Assembly (NCBI GenBank): GCA_028817405.1
Contig: JAPPPS010000151.1
Location: forward strand, 1-48,558
Origin: Gammaproteobacteria bacterium
Lineage (GTDB): Bacteria; Pseudomonadota; Gammaproteobacteria; Arenicellales; Poriferihabitantaceae
Length of the DNA: 48,558 bases
Reading direction: 5' to 3'
In this document: positions 7,356-30,282 of the stretch, piece after piece
How positions within the stretch are numbered: position 1 is the first letter of the stretch
How the letters are laid out: the number at the start of each line of letters is the position of its first letter
The notes under the pieces: generated by a model
Seen by the model: the letters and a program-made list of their open reading frames with translations, nothing else
Database searches by the model: none
Told to the model about the DNA's origin: nothing
Made by a program: the position numbers and the translations under genes

Positions 7356-7766
7356 CTATTGCGCGGAATTTTTGGCTTTGGTCCGTTTTGATTTGCCGGA
7401 ATGATGCAAGTAGGCGATGACGGATGCCGTTACGATAACCGCCGCCACCACCCACACCGCGACGCGAAACAGCATGCTCCATTCCGTGAATACCGTGTCC
7501 AACAGGCTCAGCAACAAACCGATGAGATAATACAGCGCGACCGACATGGACACAAGCGCGGCGATGGCGGCGGCGTGCAAACTGGATTTTACGGCGGAAT
7601 CCGCGCTGTCGTCACCCCAAACAGCGGCGGCGACAACCCCGGCAACTAAAATGGAAGCCACGAGCAAGACGGTCTTAACACCGTCAAACACTTCGGCGAT
7701 GACGATGCCGGCGATGAGCGCGGCCACGCCGAAAAGAACTATGCGGATTCGGTTTTCAAAGGGCAC
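7356..7766 (-). CDS. Small four-helix membrane protein
   Basis: 136 residues with a GTG start at 7766 (AGAG 8 bases upstream). Four hydrophobic segments are visible: about residues 9-26 (IVLFGVAALIAGIVIAEV), 32-50 (VLLVASILVAGVVAAAVW), 66-92 (AAIAALVSMSVALYYLIGLLLSLLDTV) and 98-120 (LFRVAVWVVAAVIVTASVIAY). A basic tail (KSKRTKAK) suggests a cytoplasmic C-terminus. No family is recognised. It sits between the GIY-YIG gene (93 bases upstream) and the YajG-like gene. Confidence 0.7.
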   Translation of the reverse strand: MPFENRIRIVLFGVAALIAGIVIAEVFDGVKTVLLVASILVAGVVAAAVWGDDSADSAVKSSLHAAAIAALVSMSVALYYLIGLLLSLLDTVFTEWSMLFRVAVWVVAAVIVTASVIAYLHHSGKSKRTKAKNSAQ

Positions 7767-7859
7767 TTTTGTCTCTCTGCATGGTGGCGTTATTTCTCGC
7801 TATTAGCCGTTGCCACACTGGAAAACGAGTGGAAAATGAGCGCAGAAATGGCCACTGAC

Positions 7860-8375
7860 CTACTTTGCGGGCGGTAAGGTTGGAAGTTGCCTGTTTGCGA
7901 AAGGCAACCTTTTGTACTGACTGTTGAATTCATGGAGCATTTCCGCTTCGACATGGGCAGGCTCGCGGTCGACGACAACCTTGCAACAAACCTGCAAATC
8001 TCGATTATTCGCCAGTTGCCAGATGTAGCTGCCGCCCTTGTGATTGTCCGCCTTCTTGTCGCCAAAACGCACAAGTTGCCGAATTCGCGTACGCAAAGTT
8101 GCACTTTGCGAACTGCCGCCGGCTTTTCCGAAATACAACACGACTGTACCCTGAACCCATTTGGATTCAAGCACCGATTTTGCAACGGTCTCATTGACAG
8201 TTTTACCGCCCTCATTAGTGAGCAGAAATCGCGGCGGGTCATCGAGCAAGCGCGCGACCAGATAGACACCCGGCATGTCTGGAATATCGAGGCAACCGCG
8301 AATCATCAGATCGCTTACTTTTTGGAATCCAGCAAATCCAGCGCTGCGCAAAGCCGAAACATCATCAAAGTTCAT
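7860..8375 (-). CDS. GIY-YIG nuclease-like protein
   Basis: 171 residues with the GIY-YIG signature spread as MPGVYLV (GVY 36-38), VVLYFGKA (YFG 81-83), LRTRIR (R95/R97), a conserved Glu in HVEAEML (E143/E145) and an Asn in LPFANRQ (N161). These match the order of the catalytic residues of the family, so a metal-dependent nuclease is likely. A GGAG Shine-Dalgarno 7 bases upstream supports the start. It overlaps by 11 bases the antitoxin-like gene upstream, whose close paralogue precedes a zeta-like kinase 2 kb away. This arrangement suggests a toxin or defence effector, which is inference. Confidence 0.75.
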   Translation of the reverse strand: MNFDDVSALRSAGFAGFQKVSDLMIRGCLDIPDMPGVYLVARLLDDPPRFLLTNEGGKTVNETVAKSVLESKWVQGTVVLYFGKAGGSSQSATLRTRIRQLVRFGDKKADNHKGGSYIWQLANNRDLQVCCKVVVDREPAHVEAEMLHEFNSQYKRLPFANRQLPTLPPAK

Positions 8376-9455: not shown

Positions 9456-9668
9456 TCACGCATACATCAACCGCTCGCCCTTGGGCTGCGGTACGGGGTC
9501 GCCGAATTCTTCGGCAGTGGCAATCCACAGTTCAATCGCTTGCGTCACATTCGCGAGCGCGTCTGCAGGCGAATCGCCGTGCGCGATGCACCCGGGCAGT
9601 TCCGGGACTTCGGCGAGAAACGCCTGGTCGGCATCGCTCCAGTAAATGATGGTTTCGTATTTATGCAT
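9456..9668 (-). CDS. hicB: HicB-family antitoxin, solitary
   Basis: 70 residues: MHKYETIIYWSDADQAFLAEVPELPGCIAHGDSPADALANV and AIELWIATA are the partial RNase H-like HicB fold. A full HicB often has a C-terminal DNA-binding domain; this one is the short form. In hicAB systems HicB neutralises the HicA mRNA interferase, but no HicA-like frame lies next to it. It follows the zeta-like gene by 32 bases and is the last gene before the duplicated atpA end. Confidence 0.8.
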   Translation of the reverse strand: MHKYETIIYWSDADQAFLAEVPELPGCIAHGDSPADALANVTQAIELWIATAEEFGDPVPQPKGERLMYA

Positions 9669-9700
9669 TGCACTATTCCGACGGTTGATATTTTACCAAA

Positions 9701-10411
9701 TCAGCCGCCAATCAGCGCCAGAATCTCTTCCGCATTATAGCGCTCAGGGATGTGGTCATCGACCCGCTGGATGCTTTTATGGTGGGAGCGGTTGCCCGTG
9801 TTGTCGATGTTTTTGATAATCAGCGACAGCGTGATTTTGTCGCCAAATTCCGCCTTCATTTTGTTGACGACAGCGTAAGATGCGCAAAACTTCTGCGCGA
9901 AATTATCCGCAAAAATTCGCCGCCCCTCGACCTCCTCGCGGCGTTGCACAAAATCCCAGGCGATTTGCGGTGACTGGTAGATGAACATAACAAACACTTC
10001 CCGCCCGCGTTTCAGCGAGCGCTCGATATTCTGGCGCGCAACACCCTCATTGGCGAATGTACCGTCCAGCAAAAAACTGACTTGCTTTTTTAGAGCGAGG
10101 TTGTGAATCTCGTGCACCAACCGGGTCGCGGCTTTTTGGAACAGATGAGAATTCGCGCCATCGTAGCCGCACACGGTGAAGCAAACGCGCAACTCATCGG
10201 CGTCGATTCGCGCGACATTGCCGGCGCCCTGTACAAACCTTTTGGAAAATTCGGTCTTGCCCGCGCCCGGTGAGCCGGCCATGAAAGCGGATACCGGATT
10301 TTCTGCGGAATTGAAATCCGCCAAAAAATCCGCGGCGATTTGTTTGGCGTTTGCCCGGGCAAAATCATCCGCGCGCTGGCGCAGCGCCGATTCGTCGTCA
10401 GCAGCGCTCAC
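9701..10411 (-). CDS. Zeta-toxin-like P-loop kinase
   Basis: 236 residues with a Walker A motif AGSPGAGKTE (residues 45-54), followed by ARIDADELR at the position where zeta toxins carry the catalytic Asp, and HEIHNLALKKQVSFLLDGTFAN. Zeta toxins phosphorylate UDP-N-acetylglucosamine and block cell-wall synthesis; the substrate here is not demonstrable. The start is GTG at 10411, 6 bases after the stop of antitoxin-like copy B, suggesting coupled translation. It could instead be another zeta-fold nucleotide or nucleic-acid kinase. Confidence 0.8.
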   Translation of the reverse strand: MSAADDESALRQRADDFARANAKQIAADFLADFNSAENPVSAFMAGSPGAGKTEFSKRFVQGAGNVARIDADELRVCFTVCGYDGANSHLFQKAATRLVHEIHNLALKKQVSFLLDGTFANEGVARQNIERSLKRGREVFVMFIYQSPQIAWDFVQRREEVEGRRIFADNFAQKFCASYAVVNKMKAEFGDKITLSLIIKNIDNTGNRSHHKSIQRVDDHIPERYNAEEILALIGG

Positions 10412-22206: not shown

Positions 22207-22727
22207 TGCGTGTTATGCTGTTTCCAACTTTAAAATATGCGCGCGCTCACTGCCACTCCGGCAACAGCCGGAGTCCAGAGTCTTTTTTAATTGAACCGAC
22301 GAACAAGCAACGAAAAGCAAAGACTCTGGATTCCCGCTTAAAAACCTGCGGGAATGACAGCGCAACGCGCCGTGCTGCACAACTAAACCGGCGCGCGACG
22401 ATGCGAGGGGCCGTCATTCCGTGCGGTAGGAAAATGCCGGGGGCCGTCATTCCGTGCGGTTGGAAAACAAGGAGCGCAGCGACTATGTTTCGCGGATTCA
22501 ACAAGCAAGTGCAACGCCTCAATCTGGGGGAGGGCGAGTTGCGGTAGCATCGTCTTTCACCGTCGGGCTTATCGGCGGCCCGCCAATTCCCCGCTGAATC
22601 GCCAGAATCCTTGTAACGGTGGGCGTTTTGGGGTGTATAAAACAACTTTCTAACCGTCAGAAAAAACGGTTGAATTTCCCCCCCCCGCTATGCTGGACTG
22701 GAATTGAACGCACCGCAAGGGGCACCC
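22207..22727. other. Intergenic repeat-rich region
   Basis: No convincing gene. It holds a palindromic REP/MITE-like element (22251-22361), a tandem pair of about 27 bases with period 33 (22408 and 22441; GGCCGTCATTCCGTGCGGT), a short inverted repeat AACCGT/ACGGTT (22652-22671) and a C-rich run before the RiPP precursor pseudogene. Confidence 0.6.
22251..22361. repeat. REP/MITE-like palindromic element, copy 1
   Basis: Starts TGCCACTCCGG, then GGAGTCCAGAGTCTTT (22270-22285), a core containing AATTGAACCGACGA and CAAGCAACG, and the inverted arm AAAGACTCTGGATTCC (to 22334). The right end switches to the GGATTCCCGC/GCGGGAATGAC hairpin also seen at 11098. It is about 80% alike copy 2 by eye over the shared core. 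The two copies flank the NHLP peptide genes in direct orientation. Confidence 0.75.
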
Positions 22728-23074
22728 ATGAATCGGGCATCAGCGTCGCAAATCCGCGATGTCTATGCAATGTTGGCCGACCCGGCGGTGCGGCAACAGT
22801 ACCGCGACGACCCGAAAGCGGCCCATCAGAACCGCTTTCGTGGGCGGGCGAGAGCCGGGAACCGGTGGGCGGTGTGGAAATCAAGGCGGTATTCAACACC
22901 GCCGACACCACCTATATCGCGCTGCCCGCCAACAGCCCCGAACACGAAATCGGCGAGGCCGACCTGGCGCGCATGGCGGCGGCACCGGTAGCGCCGGTAG
23001 CGCGGCTTGCGGCGGTACCGCCGGCTGACCGGCGGCGAACCTCCATCAAACTTCCACCATCAACCATCAACTGA
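22728..23074 (+). pseudogene. Frameshifted NHLP-type RiPP precursor
   Basis: An ATG at 22728 with AAGGGG just upstream opens MNRASASQIRDVYAMLADPAVRQQYRDDPKAA. The matching continuation, GVEIKAVFNTADTTYIALPANSPEHEIGEADLARMAAAP, is in another frame, requiring a -1 (or +2) shift near 22822-22850. Joined, it gives an NHLP (nitrile-hydratase leader peptide) layout parallel to the intact gene downstream: an N-terminal helix with DP-x-A-A, a beta stretch ending in small residues, then a Pro/Ala/Arg tail. It is either a decayed precursor or a sequencing error. Confidence 0.6.
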
Positions 23075-23084
23075 GGAGCATGTC

Positions 23085-23483
23085 ATGAGCGAAATGAAAG
23101 CCGCGTTGGCCGCCACGCCGGAAGAAGCATCGGCGCAATGGTCAAAACTGTACCGCGAGGATGCCGATTTCCGCGCCGAATTCGACCGCGACCCGCGCGC
23201 CGCCATGGGCGCGCAAGTCGGCGGCGATTTGCCGGATGAAGTCGGTGTCGTGGTGCACCGTCAAAACCCCGGCGAGATTCACATCACCGTGCCGGCCGAG
23301 AGCGGCGCGGAAGTGTCGGACGAAGCGCTGGGGCAAGTCAGCGGCGGCGTCGGCGCGGGCGCGGCCGTAGCCCTCGGCGCCGCCATGGCGGTGTCGAACC
23401 TGCCGCCGGGCGCGTTCGTGCTGATGATTCCGGCGTTTATGCTGCCGGGCGCTGTCGGCGACCTGGGCGGCGGCCAGCCGTAA
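23085..23483 (+). CDS. NHLP-family RiPP/bacteriocin precursor peptide
   Basis: 132 residues from MSEMKAALAATPEEA, with GAGGAG 8 bases upstream. Residues 1-88 are a leader of nitrile-hydratase-alpha type (WSKLYREDADFRAEFDRDPRAAMG, VGVVVHRQNPGEIHITVP, VSDEALGQVSGG) ending in a double-Gly site at 87-88. The 44-residue core is hydrophobic and Gly/Ala/Pro-rich (GAGAAVALGAAMAVSNLPPG and on) and has no Cys. No radical-SAM enzyme, cyclodehydratase, LanM or C39 peptidase exporter is in the window, so the maturation genes must lie elsewhere if it is functional. Confidence 0.75.
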   Translation: MSEMKAALAATPEEASAQWSKLYREDADFRAEFDRDPRAAMGAQVGGDLPDEVGVVVHRQNPGEIHITVPAESGAEVSDEALGQVSGGVGAGAAVALGAAMAVSNLPPGAFVLMIPAFMLPGAVGDLGGGQP

Positions 23484-23627
23484 CGCCGCGGATCGGTACG
23501 AAAATGTAGCGCGGCGGGGGCGGTTACGCCTTCGCCGCGTTGCGTTTAATTCCGCGACGCAAAGCGCCGTCATTCCCGCAATCCCCCCGCCGCCACGCCC
23601 GCAGTCTGTTAAGCGGGCGCACCCCAC

Positions 23628-23728
23628 TGCCACTCCGGTGGCAACCGGAGTCCAGAGTCTTTAATTGAACCGACGAGCAAGCAACGGAAAATAAAGACTC
23701 TGGACTCCGGATCCAGTCCGGAGTGGCA
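23628..23728. repeat. REP/MITE-like palindromic element, copy 2
   Basis: A 101-bp imperfect palindrome. The outer arms are TGCCACTCCGG (23628-23638) and CCGGAGTGGCA (23718-23728), and the inner arms GGAGTCCAGAGTCTTT and AAAGACTCTGGACTCC. The central loop is nearly the same as copy 1. No coding capacity. It fills most of the gap 23484-23800; the rest of that gap shows nothing else. Confidence 0.8.
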
Positions 23729-23800
23729 ATTGAGCGTGTCCGCGGTTGATGAAATCCCCGCCGCATCGACCGTCACCACCGCACCGTCACCACCGCGCCG

Positions 23801-26683: not shown

Positions 26684-27814
26684 ATGCACGCCGCCCCCAG
26701 TTTCACCATCGGCATCGAAGAGGAATACATGTTGGTGGAGCCGCGCACCGGCGACTTGGCGCGCAAGGTGCCGCGCTCGCTGATGCCGGCGTTGAAGAAA
26801 AAATTGGGCGCGACCGTGTCGCCGGAATTCCTGCAATCGCAAGTCGAAGTCGGCACGCCGGTGTGCAAGTCGGTCGGCGAAGCCTGCCGGGAGTTGGCGG
26901 CGTTGCGCGCCGGCGTGGCCGAAGTCGCGGCGCGCCACGACCTCGCCATCATCGCCGCCTCCACCCATCCGTTCGCCAACCCGCACGGCCAGCGCATCAC
27001 CCGGCGCGCGCGGTACGCCGAATTAGCCGAAGACCTGCAAGCGGTGGTGCGGCGGCTGCTCATCGGCGGCATGCATGTGCATGTCGGCATCGACGACGAC
27101 GACTTGCGCATCGACTTGATGAACCAAGCCAGTTACATCCTGCCGCATCTGCTGGCGCTCAGCACTTCGTCGCCGTTTTGGCAGGGCATGGACACCGGGC
27201 TGAAGTCATACCGCCTGTCGGTGTGGGACGAGATGCCGCGCACCGGCCTGCCGCATCCGTTCGATTCGTTCTCGGATTTTCAGCGGCATGTCGATGTGCT
27301 CATCGACGCCGGCATGATTGAAGATGCGACCAAAATCTGGTGGGACTTGCGCCCCAGCGCGAGATACCCGACGCTGGAGATGCGCATCGCCGACCTCTGC
27401 ACCACGCTCAAAGACGCGGCCTGCGTGGCCGCGCTGTTCCAGTGCTGGCTGCGCATGCTGCACCGCCTGCGCCTGTCCAACTTGCGGTGGCGGCAGTATT
27501 CCAACTGGCTGCTGGAGGAGAACCGGTGGCGCGCGCACCGCTACGGCATCGACAACGCGCTCATCGACTTCGGCCGCGGCCGGGCGGTGGAATACGCCGA
27601 GTTGTTGGGCGAGATCCTGGCGCTGTTATCCGACGACGCCGAGGCCCTGAACTGCGCCGCCGAAGTCCGCCACGCCCGCACCATCCTCCGCCGCGGCACC
27701 AGCGCGCACCGCCAACTAAAAATCTACCACCACGCCATAAAACAAGGCCGCACCAAAGAAGCCGCATTAGCGACGGTGGTCAACTGGCTGCGGAAGGAGA
27801 CGCTGCGGGTGTGA
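26684..27814 (+). CDS. ybdK: YbdK-family carboxylate-amine ligase
   Basis: 376 residues, usual length for the GCS2/YbdK family, which forms gamma-glutamyl-type amides in an ATP-dependent reaction. Motifs: FTIGIEEEYMLVEP at the N-terminus, GGMHVHVGI, WWDLRPSARYPTLEMRIAD and LLEENRWRAHRYG. Its substrate is unknown. No Shine-Dalgarno is obvious. Its TGA (27812-27814) shares a base with the cas3 ATG, so the Cas operon is translationally attached to this housekeeping-type gene. Confidence 0.92.
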   Translation: MHAAPSFTIGIEEEYMLVEPRTGDLARKVPRSLMPALKKKLGATVSPEFLQSQVEVGTPVCKSVGEACRELAALRAGVAEVAARHDLAIIAASTHPFANPHGQRITRRARYAELAEDLQAVVRRLLIGGMHVHVGIDDDDLRIDLMNQASYILPHLLALSTSSPFWQGMDTGLKSYRLSVWDEMPRTGLPHPFDSFSDFQRHVDVLIDAGMIEDATKIWWDLRPSARYPTLEMRIADLCTTLKDAACVAALFQCWLRMLHRLRLSNLRWRQYSNWLLEENRWRAHRYGIDNALIDFGRGRAVEYAELLGEILALLSDDAEALNCAAEVRHARTILRRGTSAHRQLKIYHHAIKQGRTKEAALATVVNWLRKETLRV

Positions 27815-30282
27815 TGATGGAGTATGTTGCGCACATCAGAAAGACCGACGAATCCGAACAGCGTTTGGAGTCGCATCTGTTCGAGGTGGGGGAACTCGCC
27901 GAGAAATTCGCCGCCAAAATCGGCCTGCCAGAAGCTGGGCTGTTGCTGGGTCTCCTTCACGACCTCGGCAAATACAGCCAAGCGTTCCAAAACTACATCA
28001 ACTCCGCGGAAGGTAGAATCGACCCCGACCAAGACGGTTTTGTCGATGCGGGCAAATTGAAAGGGAAAATCGACCACTCGTCCGCCGGGGCGCAGCATGT
28101 GTGGCGACAATTGAAGCACTACGGCTCCGCGGGCCAAGGAGAATTATGCGGGCAAATTCTGGCGCTATGCATCGCGTCTCATCATAGCGGTCTGATTAAC
28201 TGCCTGGATGAGGATGGCATTCCGACCTTTTGCAACCGGATGGAAAAACCGGATGAGAAAACGCATCTCGGAGAATGCCTTTCGAGCGCCGATTCCAATC
28301 TTACGCAGCGCGTGGGGGAACTCACCGCCACATCCATGGTACAGAAAATGTTTGGAGTGATACGGCAAATGGTTCATCTGCCGGATAACCCGGAAGGTGA
28401 ACTGAATAAACTCGATGCCTTTGCGCTCGGCATGTTCGTGCGCTTTCTGTTCGGTTGCTTGGTTGATGCTGACCGCCTGAACAGCGCCGAATTTGAAGAC
28501 CCTTCGAGAAAAACCGCTAGAGAAAAGCGGGAAAAGCGATTGAGGTGGAAAACGGCCATAGACCGAGTTGAGAATCGGATTGCGCAGTTCAGCCAAGACA
28601 CCCCGATTGGGAAAATTCGGGCGCAGATTTCCGATGACTGCTTGCGCCGCGCGTCCGACCCGCAAGGAGCATACACGCTCACCGTCCCCACCGGCGGCGG
28701 GAAAACTCTGACCAGTCTGCGCTACGCGTTGCACCACGCCAAGCGCCATAAACTGGACCGCATCATCTATGTGATTCCCTACACCTCAATCATCGAGCAA
28801 AACGCCGGCGCCGTCAGAGAGATAGTGGAAAACAAAGGAGACCCTTTTCCATGGGTGCTGGAACACCACAGCAACCTGGATCCCAGCAAGCAAACTTGGC
28901 ATTCCAAACTCGTGACCGAAAATTGGGATGCCCCGATTATCTTCACCACGATGGTTCAGTTTTTGGAAATTTTGTTTGGCGGCGGCACGACAAGCGTGCG
29001 GCGCATGCACCAACTCGCCAATGCGGTTTTGATTTTTGACGAAATCCAAACCATCCCCATAAAATGCGTTCACATGTTCTGTAATGCGCTGAATTTTCTA
29101 ACCCAATCGGCCGGTACAACGGCGGTTTTATGCACGGCTACCCAACCGCTTCTGGATGAATTACGCAATCCTGAAAACGGCTCGCTGAATCTTGCCGCAA
29201 ACGCCGAACTGATGCCGAACAAAAAGGCGTTGGAGAAAAAATTACGCAGAACGGATGTTCAAAATCGGGTTCGACCGGGCGGGTGGTCGGAGGAAGAAAT
29301 CGCAGATTTGGCTTTGACCAACTTACACGATGCCGGAAGTTGCTTGGTGGTGGTAAACATCAAGGAATGGGCTAAGCGCCTTTTTGTTGCGTTGAAGAGT
29401 CGTTGCGAATATGGCGCGCTTTTCCATCTGAGCACCGGCCTGTACCCGGAACACCGCAGAAAGGTACTCGATGAAATCAAAAGACGGTTAAAATCCAACC
29501 AACCGGTTCTATGCGTCAGCACCCAACTCATAGAGGCCGGGGTGGACATCAGTTTTGCCAGCGTTATTCGGTTTCTGGCCGGTCTGGATTCCATCGCACA
29601 GTCCGCCGGTCGCTGTAATCGACATGGCGAACTGGGGGGGCGTGGCCGAGTTGTGGTGATTAACCCCAAAAGCGAAGATGAAAATCTTTCGAGACTGGCC
29701 GATATTCGCGCCGGTAGAGACGTTTCACAGCGCATTTTTGGTGACATCGCCCTCGACAAGATTTTGGCGCCCTGTACACTGACGACATACTTCAAATACT
29801 ACTTCTACGACAAGGCGAGAGAAATGACTTACCTCGTGAAAGGGGGCGACCGAGACGACAATCTGGTCAATCTGCTGAGCACGAATCTCATCAACCCTGG
29901 AAAATGCCATCCGTGTCTGAATCATCCCGGGAAGTTGCCGCTACTGAAACAGTCCTTTATGGATGCTGCGAAGTGGTTCCGTGTAATCGATGCGCCAACC
30001 CAACCGGTGATTATCCAGCATGGGGGAGGAAAAGAAATTGTGAATCAACTCTGCTCGCTCGCAAAGGCGTTTGATGCCGCAGGCTACTATCAGGCACTGA
30101 AAAGCGCCCAGCAATTTAGCGTCAATGTCTACCCCAATGTTTGGAAGCAACTGCAGGAGCGGGACGCAATCCGTGAAACGCAAGAGGGCGAGGGCGTTTT
30201 TTACCTGATGGAGACCTATTACAGTGAGGAATTTGGGTTATCCACCGAGCCGGTCGCCCCCTTGCCGCCTCAAATCTGTTAG
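27814..30282 (+). CDS. cas3: CRISPR type I-C helicase-nuclease Cas3
   Basis: 822 residues. The N-terminal HD nuclease has H21 and H49-D50 (LLHDLGKY) plus ASHHSG. The SF2 helicase part has Walker A VPTGGGKT near residue 290, the DEIQ box near 409 and motif VI QSAGRCNRHG near 600. It is recruited by the Cascade complex to degrade target DNA. The start chosen, MMEYVAHIRK, overlaps the ybdK stop (TGATG); the frame is open further upstream but that part lies in ybdK. Confidence 0.97.
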   Translation: MMEYVAHIRKTDESEQRLESHLFEVGELAEKFAAKIGLPEAGLLLGLLHDLGKYSQAFQNYINSAEGRIDPDQDGFVDAGKLKGKIDHSSAGAQHVWRQLKHYGSAGQGELCGQILALCIASHHSGLINCLDEDGIPTFCNRMEKPDEKTHLGECLSSADSNLTQRVGELTATSMVQKMFGVIRQMVHLPDNPEGELNKLDAFALGMFVRFLFGCLVDADRLNSAEFEDPSRKTAREKREKRLRWKTAIDRVENRIAQFSQDTPIGKIRAQISDDCLRRASDPQGAYTLTVPTGGGKTLTSLRYALHHAKRHKLDRIIYVIPYTSIIEQNAGAVREIVENKGDPFPWVLEHHSNLDPSKQTWHSKLVTENWDAPIIFTTMVQFLEILFGGGTTSVRRMHQLANAVLIFDEIQTIPIKCVHMFCNALNFLTQSAGTTAVLCTATQPLLDELRNPENGSLNLAANAELMPNKKALEKKLRRTDVQNRVRPGGWSEEEIADLALTNLHDAGSCLVVVNIKEWAKRLFVALKSRCEYGALFHLSTGLYPEHRRKVLDEIKRRLKSNQPVLCVSTQLIEAGVDISFASVIRFLAGLDSIAQSAGRCNRHGELGGRGRVVVINPKSEDENLSRLADIRAGRDVSQRIFGDIALDKILAPCTLTTYFKYYFYDKAREMTYLVKGGDRDDNLVNLLSTNLINPGKCHPCLNHPGKLPLLKQSFMDAAKWFRVIDAPTQPVIIQHGGGKEIVNQLCSLAKAFDAAGYYQALKSAQQFSVNVYPNVWKQLQERDAIRETQEGEGVFYLMETYYSEEFGLSTEPVAPLPPQIC

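What the first reader, a model, noticed from the sequence alone, without database searches (positions are those of the whole stretch)
22728..23483. Pair of NHLP-type RiPP precursors, one broken, flanked by palindromic elements
The intact 132-residue precursor has a nitrile-hydratase-type leader ending in GG; the upstream paralogue is frameshifted. Direct copies of a 100-bp palindrome flank both (22251-22361 and 23628-23728), suggesting the pair can move or be lost as a unit.
Basis: partly seen in the sequence, partly recalled or inferred. Interest (0 to 1): 0.6.

Follow-up and report, generated by a model that had tools for sequence, protein, structure and literature searches.

The report
Scattered RiPP precursor gene family, two members
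The two small genes are real members of a known kind of peptide-natural-product precursor; they are part of a family of about 21 scattered through this bacterium's genome, the enzymes and exporter such peptides need lie elsewhere in the same genome, and the 'flanking palindromes' are a common genome-wide repeat rather than the ends of a mobile unit.

Summary
The intact gene (23085-23483, 132 aa) is a nitrile-hydratase-type-leader (NHLP-clan) RiPP precursor: 88-aa leader ending VSGG, 44-aa core. The upstream gene is a decayed NHLP precursor of a different leader subfamily, broken by two frameshifts, not one. Both belong to about 21 NHLP-clan genes on ten contigs of this 2.86-Mb assembly. This resembles the published 'dehydrazole' toolkit. 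Three same-genus genomes have no TOMM YcaO and at most one NHLP-profile hit. The intact core has one Ser and no Thr or Cys, so it is probably not a heterocycle substrate; I favour C39 trimming and export as a hydrophobic, little-modified peptide. The palindromes are real, but their core motif occurs 283 times in the genome and no clean empty site was found, so 'moves as a unit' is unsupported. Elements do lie near four or five of ten precursor clusters, a lead with a composition caveat. New member of a known kind; the dispersed expansion and a leader-identical, core-different pair on C37 are the interesting parts.

The parts
22248..22361 (.). left palindromic repeat element (composite; 22248-22334 matches the right copy)
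22401..22466 (.). tandem pair of a 33-bp unit (GGGGCCGTCATTCCGTGCGGT...); a similar stretch lies near the end of contig C18
   Evidence: family D19; by reading
22728..23028 (+). decayed NHLP-clan precursor of the Ser/Thr/Cys-core subfamily; first frame to about 22838, second frame about 22850-22975, third frame about 22977-23028 (core remnant then stop)
23073..23078 (+). GAGGAG ribosome-binding-like site, 6 nt before the ATG at 23085
   Evidence: sequence
23085..23348 (+). leader region of the intact precursor (88 aa, ends VSGG)
23349..23483 (+). predicted 44-aa core VGAGAAVALGAAMAVSNLPPGAFVLMIPAFMLPGAVGDLGGGQP plus stop; hydrophobic (GRAVY +1.16), 1 Ser, no Thr or Cys
23624..23730 (.). right palindromic repeat element

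Best explanation
The intact gene encodes an NHLP-clan RiPP precursor. Its roughly 88-residue leader is recognised by the one NHLM export system found in the genome; the C39 peptidase domain cuts after VSGG and the 44-residue hydrophobic core is released outside the cell. Because the core has one Ser and no Thr or Cys, the heterocyclase and dehydratase probably leave it unmodified or nearly so. The gene next to it is a dead member of the sister subfamily, whose Ser/Thr/Cys-rich cores are the likely substrates of the unlinked YcaO/SagB/LanM-type enzymes. The family expands, scatters and decays by birth and death of single genes with core exchange; the flanking palindromes are generic repeats. 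Shown by sequence: leader homology, family size, presence of the enzymes and exporter, the frameshifts, the repeat count. Inferred: cleavage site, export, lack of modification, mode of evolution.
For: Leader: TIGR03793 E 5e-11 and PDB NHLP 8tb1. About 21 NHLP-clan genes on ten contigs. Exporter NHLM_micro_HlyD and NHLM_micro_ABC1 both above curated cut-offs, on the same contig as two family members. YcaO SagD-type 250 bits, above cut-off, with a fused leader-binding domain also above cut-off; SagB dehydrogenase above cut-off and PF13575 dehydratase 201 bits. Congeners G001-G003 lack the YcaO and the expansion. Leader tree: intact gene, C18b and C20a form one clade (99/97), apart from the Ser/Thr/Cys-rich ones. 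Congener G002, without a TOMM YcaO, has an NHLP with a VSGG site and a similarly hydrophobic core. Repeat motif 283 times genome-wide, reversed control 0.
Against: The TIGR03793 curated cut-off is not reached (42 against 50.9 bits). No maturation or export gene is adjacent in the window. Only some modifying-enzyme families were searched: radical SAM epimerases and methyltransferases were not, so the core could be modified in other ways. No promoter-like site was found. The core has no orthologue, so selection on it cannot be shown.
Confidence: 0.7

Rival explanations
1. The intact gene is a substrate of modifying enzymes not searched for here, for example radical SAM epimerases or methyltransferases as in polytheonamide-type proteusins, giving a hypermodified hydrophobic peptide.
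For: Gly/Ala/Val-rich hydrophobic cores suit epimerisation and C-methylation (own knowledge of polytheonamides, not tested); NHLP leaders are the leader type of proteusins (PMC10676384).
Against: No such enzyme was recognised beside the precursor loci that were read, but those were not scanned exhaustively and the genome was not searched for them.
Confidence: 0.2
2. The pair is a mobile cassette bounded by the two direct palindromic repeats, gained or lost by recombination between them.
For: Repeats in direct orientation on both sides; the four-gene cluster on C78 also has repeats on both sides; elements lie within about 350 bp of four clusters, and a truncated copy ends contig C18 near a fifth, against 6-10% of control segments.
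Against: 283 motif copies genome-wide, often clustered; no second copy of the pair; no recombinase recognised beside it; the other five clusters have no element nearby; controls are mostly coding sequence while the elements look intergenic, so the enrichment may be compositional; the 3' ends of the two copies differ.
Confidence: 0.1
3. The intact gene is itself a dying remnant: a leader whose core has drifted and has no product.
For: Two of its relatives are broken: the upstream gene (two frameshifts) and C18a (in-frame TAG just before the core); the core is not conserved anywhere searched.
Against: The reading frame, ribosome-binding-like site, full leader motif and VSGG are intact; a hydrophobic core after VSGG is also seen in the G002 gene.
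Confidence: 0.15

Closest known systems
NHLP/TOMM precursor families of Haft, Basu and Mitchell 2010 (PMC2887384)
   Same: Long nitrile-hydratase-alpha-like leader without the CxxCSC motif, SDExLxxVxGG cleavage region, hypervariable cores, large paralogous families, co-occurrence with the HlyD/ABC1/ABC2 export trio; unlinked maturases were already reported (Microscilla, Methylobacterium).
   Different: About 21 members on ten contigs here, against 1-12 NHLPs per genome in that 2010 survey (different score threshold, so not strictly comparable); the intact window core is hydrophobic and nearly free of Ser/Thr/Cys; scores fall below the curated cut-off.
Dehydrazoles / carnazolamide (PMC10676384)
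   Same: NHLP precursors with Ser/Thr/Cys-rich cores, YcaO, dehydrogenase, and a PF13575 dehydratase without a recognised PF05147 cyclase; that paper mentions an uncultured Thioglobus cluster with two YcaOs, one such dehydratase and several divergent leaders.
   Different: Here the YcaOs (C14), dehydrogenase plus dehydratase (C52) and precursors lie on different contigs; zinc ligands of the cyclase region were not examined; the intact window gene lacks the substrate residues.
Prochlorosin-type leader/core diversification (Nif11 leaders; PMC10783134 abstract and own knowledge)
   Same: One machinery, many scattered precursors, conserved leader with exchanged cores; the C37 pair has identical leader DNA and unrelated cores.
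   Different: NHLP rather than Nif11 leader; TOMM-type enzymes in addition to a LanM-type dehydratase; at least two leader subfamilies.

Membership tests
NHLP leader family TIGR03793 | reaches the curated TIGR03793 score cut-off | tested here: not met
   42.3 bits against 50.9; E 5e-11, so I file it in the wider NHLP clan, not as a TIGR03793 member
NHLP leader clan (features of PMC2887384) | nitrile-hydratase-alpha similarity without the CxxCSC metal site | tested here: met
   weak TIGR01323 matches, E 0.049 for the window gene and 1.5e-4 for C18b; the intact protein has no Cys
NHLP leader clan (features of PMC2887384) | SDExLxxVxGG cleavage region at the leader end | tested here: met
   SDEALGQVSGG; aligned to 8tb1 SDEDLGAVTGG
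NHLP leader clan (features of PMC2887384) | genome encodes the NHLM export trio | tested here: met
   TIGR03794 and TIGR03796 above cut-off on C20; TIGR03797 614 bits on the 3' part of the third gene only
Dehydrazole / TOMM-type proteusin pathway (whole genome) | YcaO cyclodehydratase, dehydrogenase and PF13575 dehydratase present | tested here: met
Dehydrazole / TOMM-type proteusin pathway (whole genome) | YcaO and dehydratase genes clustered with the precursor | tested here: not met
   C14, C52 and the precursor contigs are separate contigs; the assembly is fragmented, so true distances are unknown
Dehydrazole / TOMM-type proteusin precursor (the intact window gene) | core rich in Ser, Thr, Cys | tested here: not met
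   1 of 44 residues
Radical-SAM proteusin (polytheonamide type) | PoyD-type epimerase or methyltransferase in the genome | not tested
Mobile element / cassette | terminal repeats restricted to the unit, or an occupied/empty site pair | tested here: inconclusive
   repeat is genome-wide; synteny with G002 breaks at the junction, no clean empty site

The most novel reading that the evidence does not exclude
One leader clan in a single cell serves two chemistries: Ser/Thr/Cys-rich cores processed by an unlinked dehydrazole-type enzyme set, and a separate leader clade (the window gene, C18b, C20a) carrying unmodified or otherwise modified cores exported by the same NHLM/C39 system, with new members made by swapping the core precisely at the leader's end.
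Probability: 0.3. Interest if true: 0.6.

Novelty: new member of a known kind. Interest (0 to 1): 0.42.

Why it matters
It shows that an apparently orphan RiPP precursor can be explained by machinery elsewhere in the genome, and that a cluster-based search would miss most of this bacterium's peptide repertoire: about 21 precursor genes on ten contigs, none found on the YcaO contig. The pair on C37 with identical leader DNA and unrelated cores makes core replacement directly testable, and the presence of the system in one species but not in three congeners suggests recent gain or loss.

Tried and rejected
The single-sequence structure prediction was weak (mean pLDDT 55; leader helices only, core disordered) and was not used for fold searches. 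Empty-site test: the left-flank LysE-type gene has an 85% identical orthologue in G002, but what follows it there is unrelated (TRAP-type transporter genes by reading), so no conclusion. A scan of GTDB genomes found one distant relative (34%); plasmids gave only Tistrella and Azospirillum matches. No Rfam family covers the repeats. Profile hits in relatives with frames above about 200 aa look like true nitrile hydratase subunits and were not counted as precursors (inferred from length, not scanned). Rejected: that the frameshifted gene is a close copy of the intact one. The mobile-unit reading was downgraded because of the repeat's copy number.

Full report
What is there. The ORF 23085-23483 encodes 132 residues. 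A GAGGAG site lies six bases before the ATG. Residues 23-88 match the NHLP leader family TIGR03793 (E 5e-11, 42 bits, cut-off 50.9), and phmmer aligns residues 13-89 with a solved NHLP leader construct, 8tb1, including the terminal GG (E 5.8e-5). Pfam has no match. The predicted core is VGAGAAVALGAAMAVSNLPPGAFVLMIPAFMLPGAVGDLGGGQP: hydrophobic, one Ser, no Thr, no Cys.

The upstream gene. The ATG at 22728 opens an NHLP-like N-terminus that leaves frame; a profile built from the genome's other precursors finds the next part in a second frame, and a third frame holds GGTGSAGSAACGGTAG before a stop, at the place where the intact relative C153c has GGTGSTGSAG. The DNA alignment with C153c and C143 shows indels. 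So the gene carries two frameshifts and belongs with the relatives of the other leader subfamily, not with its intact neighbour. The reads are not available, so an assembly error cannot be excluded, but the neighbouring genes are open.

The family. A search of the 2.86-Mb, 160-contig assembly (93% complete) with the intact protein finds three further relatives at 50-60% identity on C18 and C20. TIGR03793 and a ten-row profile raise the count to about 21 NHLP-clan genes on ten contigs: C153 x3, C37 x3, C78 x4, C105 x2, C18 x2, C20 x2, C60 x2, C143, C54 and C15. The C78, C60, C54 and C15 genes and the broken window gene were not rows of the profile, so they are independent finds; the rest match it by construction. 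One (C20:9480-9719) is a leader without a core, one (C18a) has an in-frame TAG before the core region, one is the broken window gene; 18 look intact with a core. Ten cores are 35-58% Ser/Thr/Cys; the intact window gene's is 2%. In a leader tree the window gene, C18b and C20a form a clade with support 99/97, though several other branches are long.

The machinery. Two SagD-type YcaO proteins lie side by side on C14, each with a fused leader-binding domain; one passes the TIGR03604 cut-off (250 against 219; the other reaches 198) and both pass that of TIGR03882. A SagB-type dehydrogenase (above cut-off) lies beside a LanM-type protein on C52 that matches PF13575 at 201 bits and no Pfam cyclase; it is below the TIGR03897 LanM cut-off. 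C20 carries a TolC-type protein, an NHLM HlyD, an NHLM peptidase-ABC and an NHLM ABC2 gene in one direction, with NHLP genes at 7597-7962 and 9480-9719. This combination is what the dehydrazole paper describes, including a two-YcaO, one-dehydratase case from an uncultured Thioglobus (PMC10676384), but there the genes are clustered. Unlinked maturases were reported for NHLPs in 2010 (PMC2887384).

Comparison with relatives. Of three same-genus genomes none has a TIGR03604 hit, and they have zero or one hit each of the precursor profile. G006, G009, G018 and G033, more distant, have a YcaO above cut-off and NHLP genes, in G033 within 1 kb of each other. In 109 genomes of the order the subfamily profile finds only leader-level similarity outside G000. 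G002 has one NHLP gene with a VSGG site and a hydrophobic core (GRAVY +1.05), with a near-cut-off match to a class IIb bacteriocin family (18.4 against 21.5 bits); that is the main hint for the window gene's likely product type. Whether G002 has the exporter was not tested.

The palindromes. Both elements are real, fold far better than shuffles and lie in direct orientation, but match over only about 87 nt at 86%. Their core motif CCAGAGTCTTT occurs 283 times in the genome, its reversed control never, which means very roughly 140-180 elements (my estimate, most having two arms), often in clusters. Elements lie within about 350 bp of the precursor clusters on C78, C105, C153 and C20, and contig C18 ends in a truncated copy; among control 1-kb segments 6-10% have one that close. 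A naive binomial gives 0.002 (four of ten) to 0.0001 (five of ten), but the control is mostly coding DNA, the test was post hoc, and the other five clusters have none nearby. I treat this as a lead, not as support for mobility.

Mechanism. Best reading: a folded leader addresses the precursor to the exporter, whose C39 domain cuts after VSGG; YcaO recognition of folded NHLP leaders is published (PMC12455567), but this core offers almost no residue for heterocyclisation or dehydration. Each step from translation on is inference. The family seems to evolve by birth and death with core exchange: C37a and C37b share identical leader DNA to within the last leader codons and then have unrelated cores.

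Verdict. Ordinary as a pair, more interesting as part of a dispersed family that its three sampled congeners lack. Interest 0.42.

Noticed in passing
window 35934-about 46000: A very long CRISPR array: about 145 copies of GTCGCGCCCCTCACGGGGCGCGTGGATTGAAAC at 67-72 bp spacing, with some spacers duplicated; a Cas3-type helicase gene lies at about 27340-30282.
   Followed up: partly
L044:6778-7119 and 7464-7796 (C37): Two tandem NHLP genes with identical leader DNA and similar upstream sequence but unrelated cores, the change falling at the leader's last codons.
   Followed up: partly
L039:9480-9719 (C20): An NHLP leader without a core region at the start of the NHLM export operon.
   Followed up: no
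L075:3742-6942 (C52): LanM-type protein with PF13575 but no recognised LanC-like domain, beside a SagB dehydrogenase; candidate LanMbC-type enzyme.
   Followed up: partly
L038 about 790-810 and window about 22679-22687: Poly-C tracts beside two decayed precursors, C18a and the window gene; possible slippage sites.
   Followed up: no
L067:3229-9260 (C74): A second C39-type ABC transporter with an adaptor, next to a protein rich in GGxGxD-like repeats, read as a type I secretion locus.
   Followed up: no
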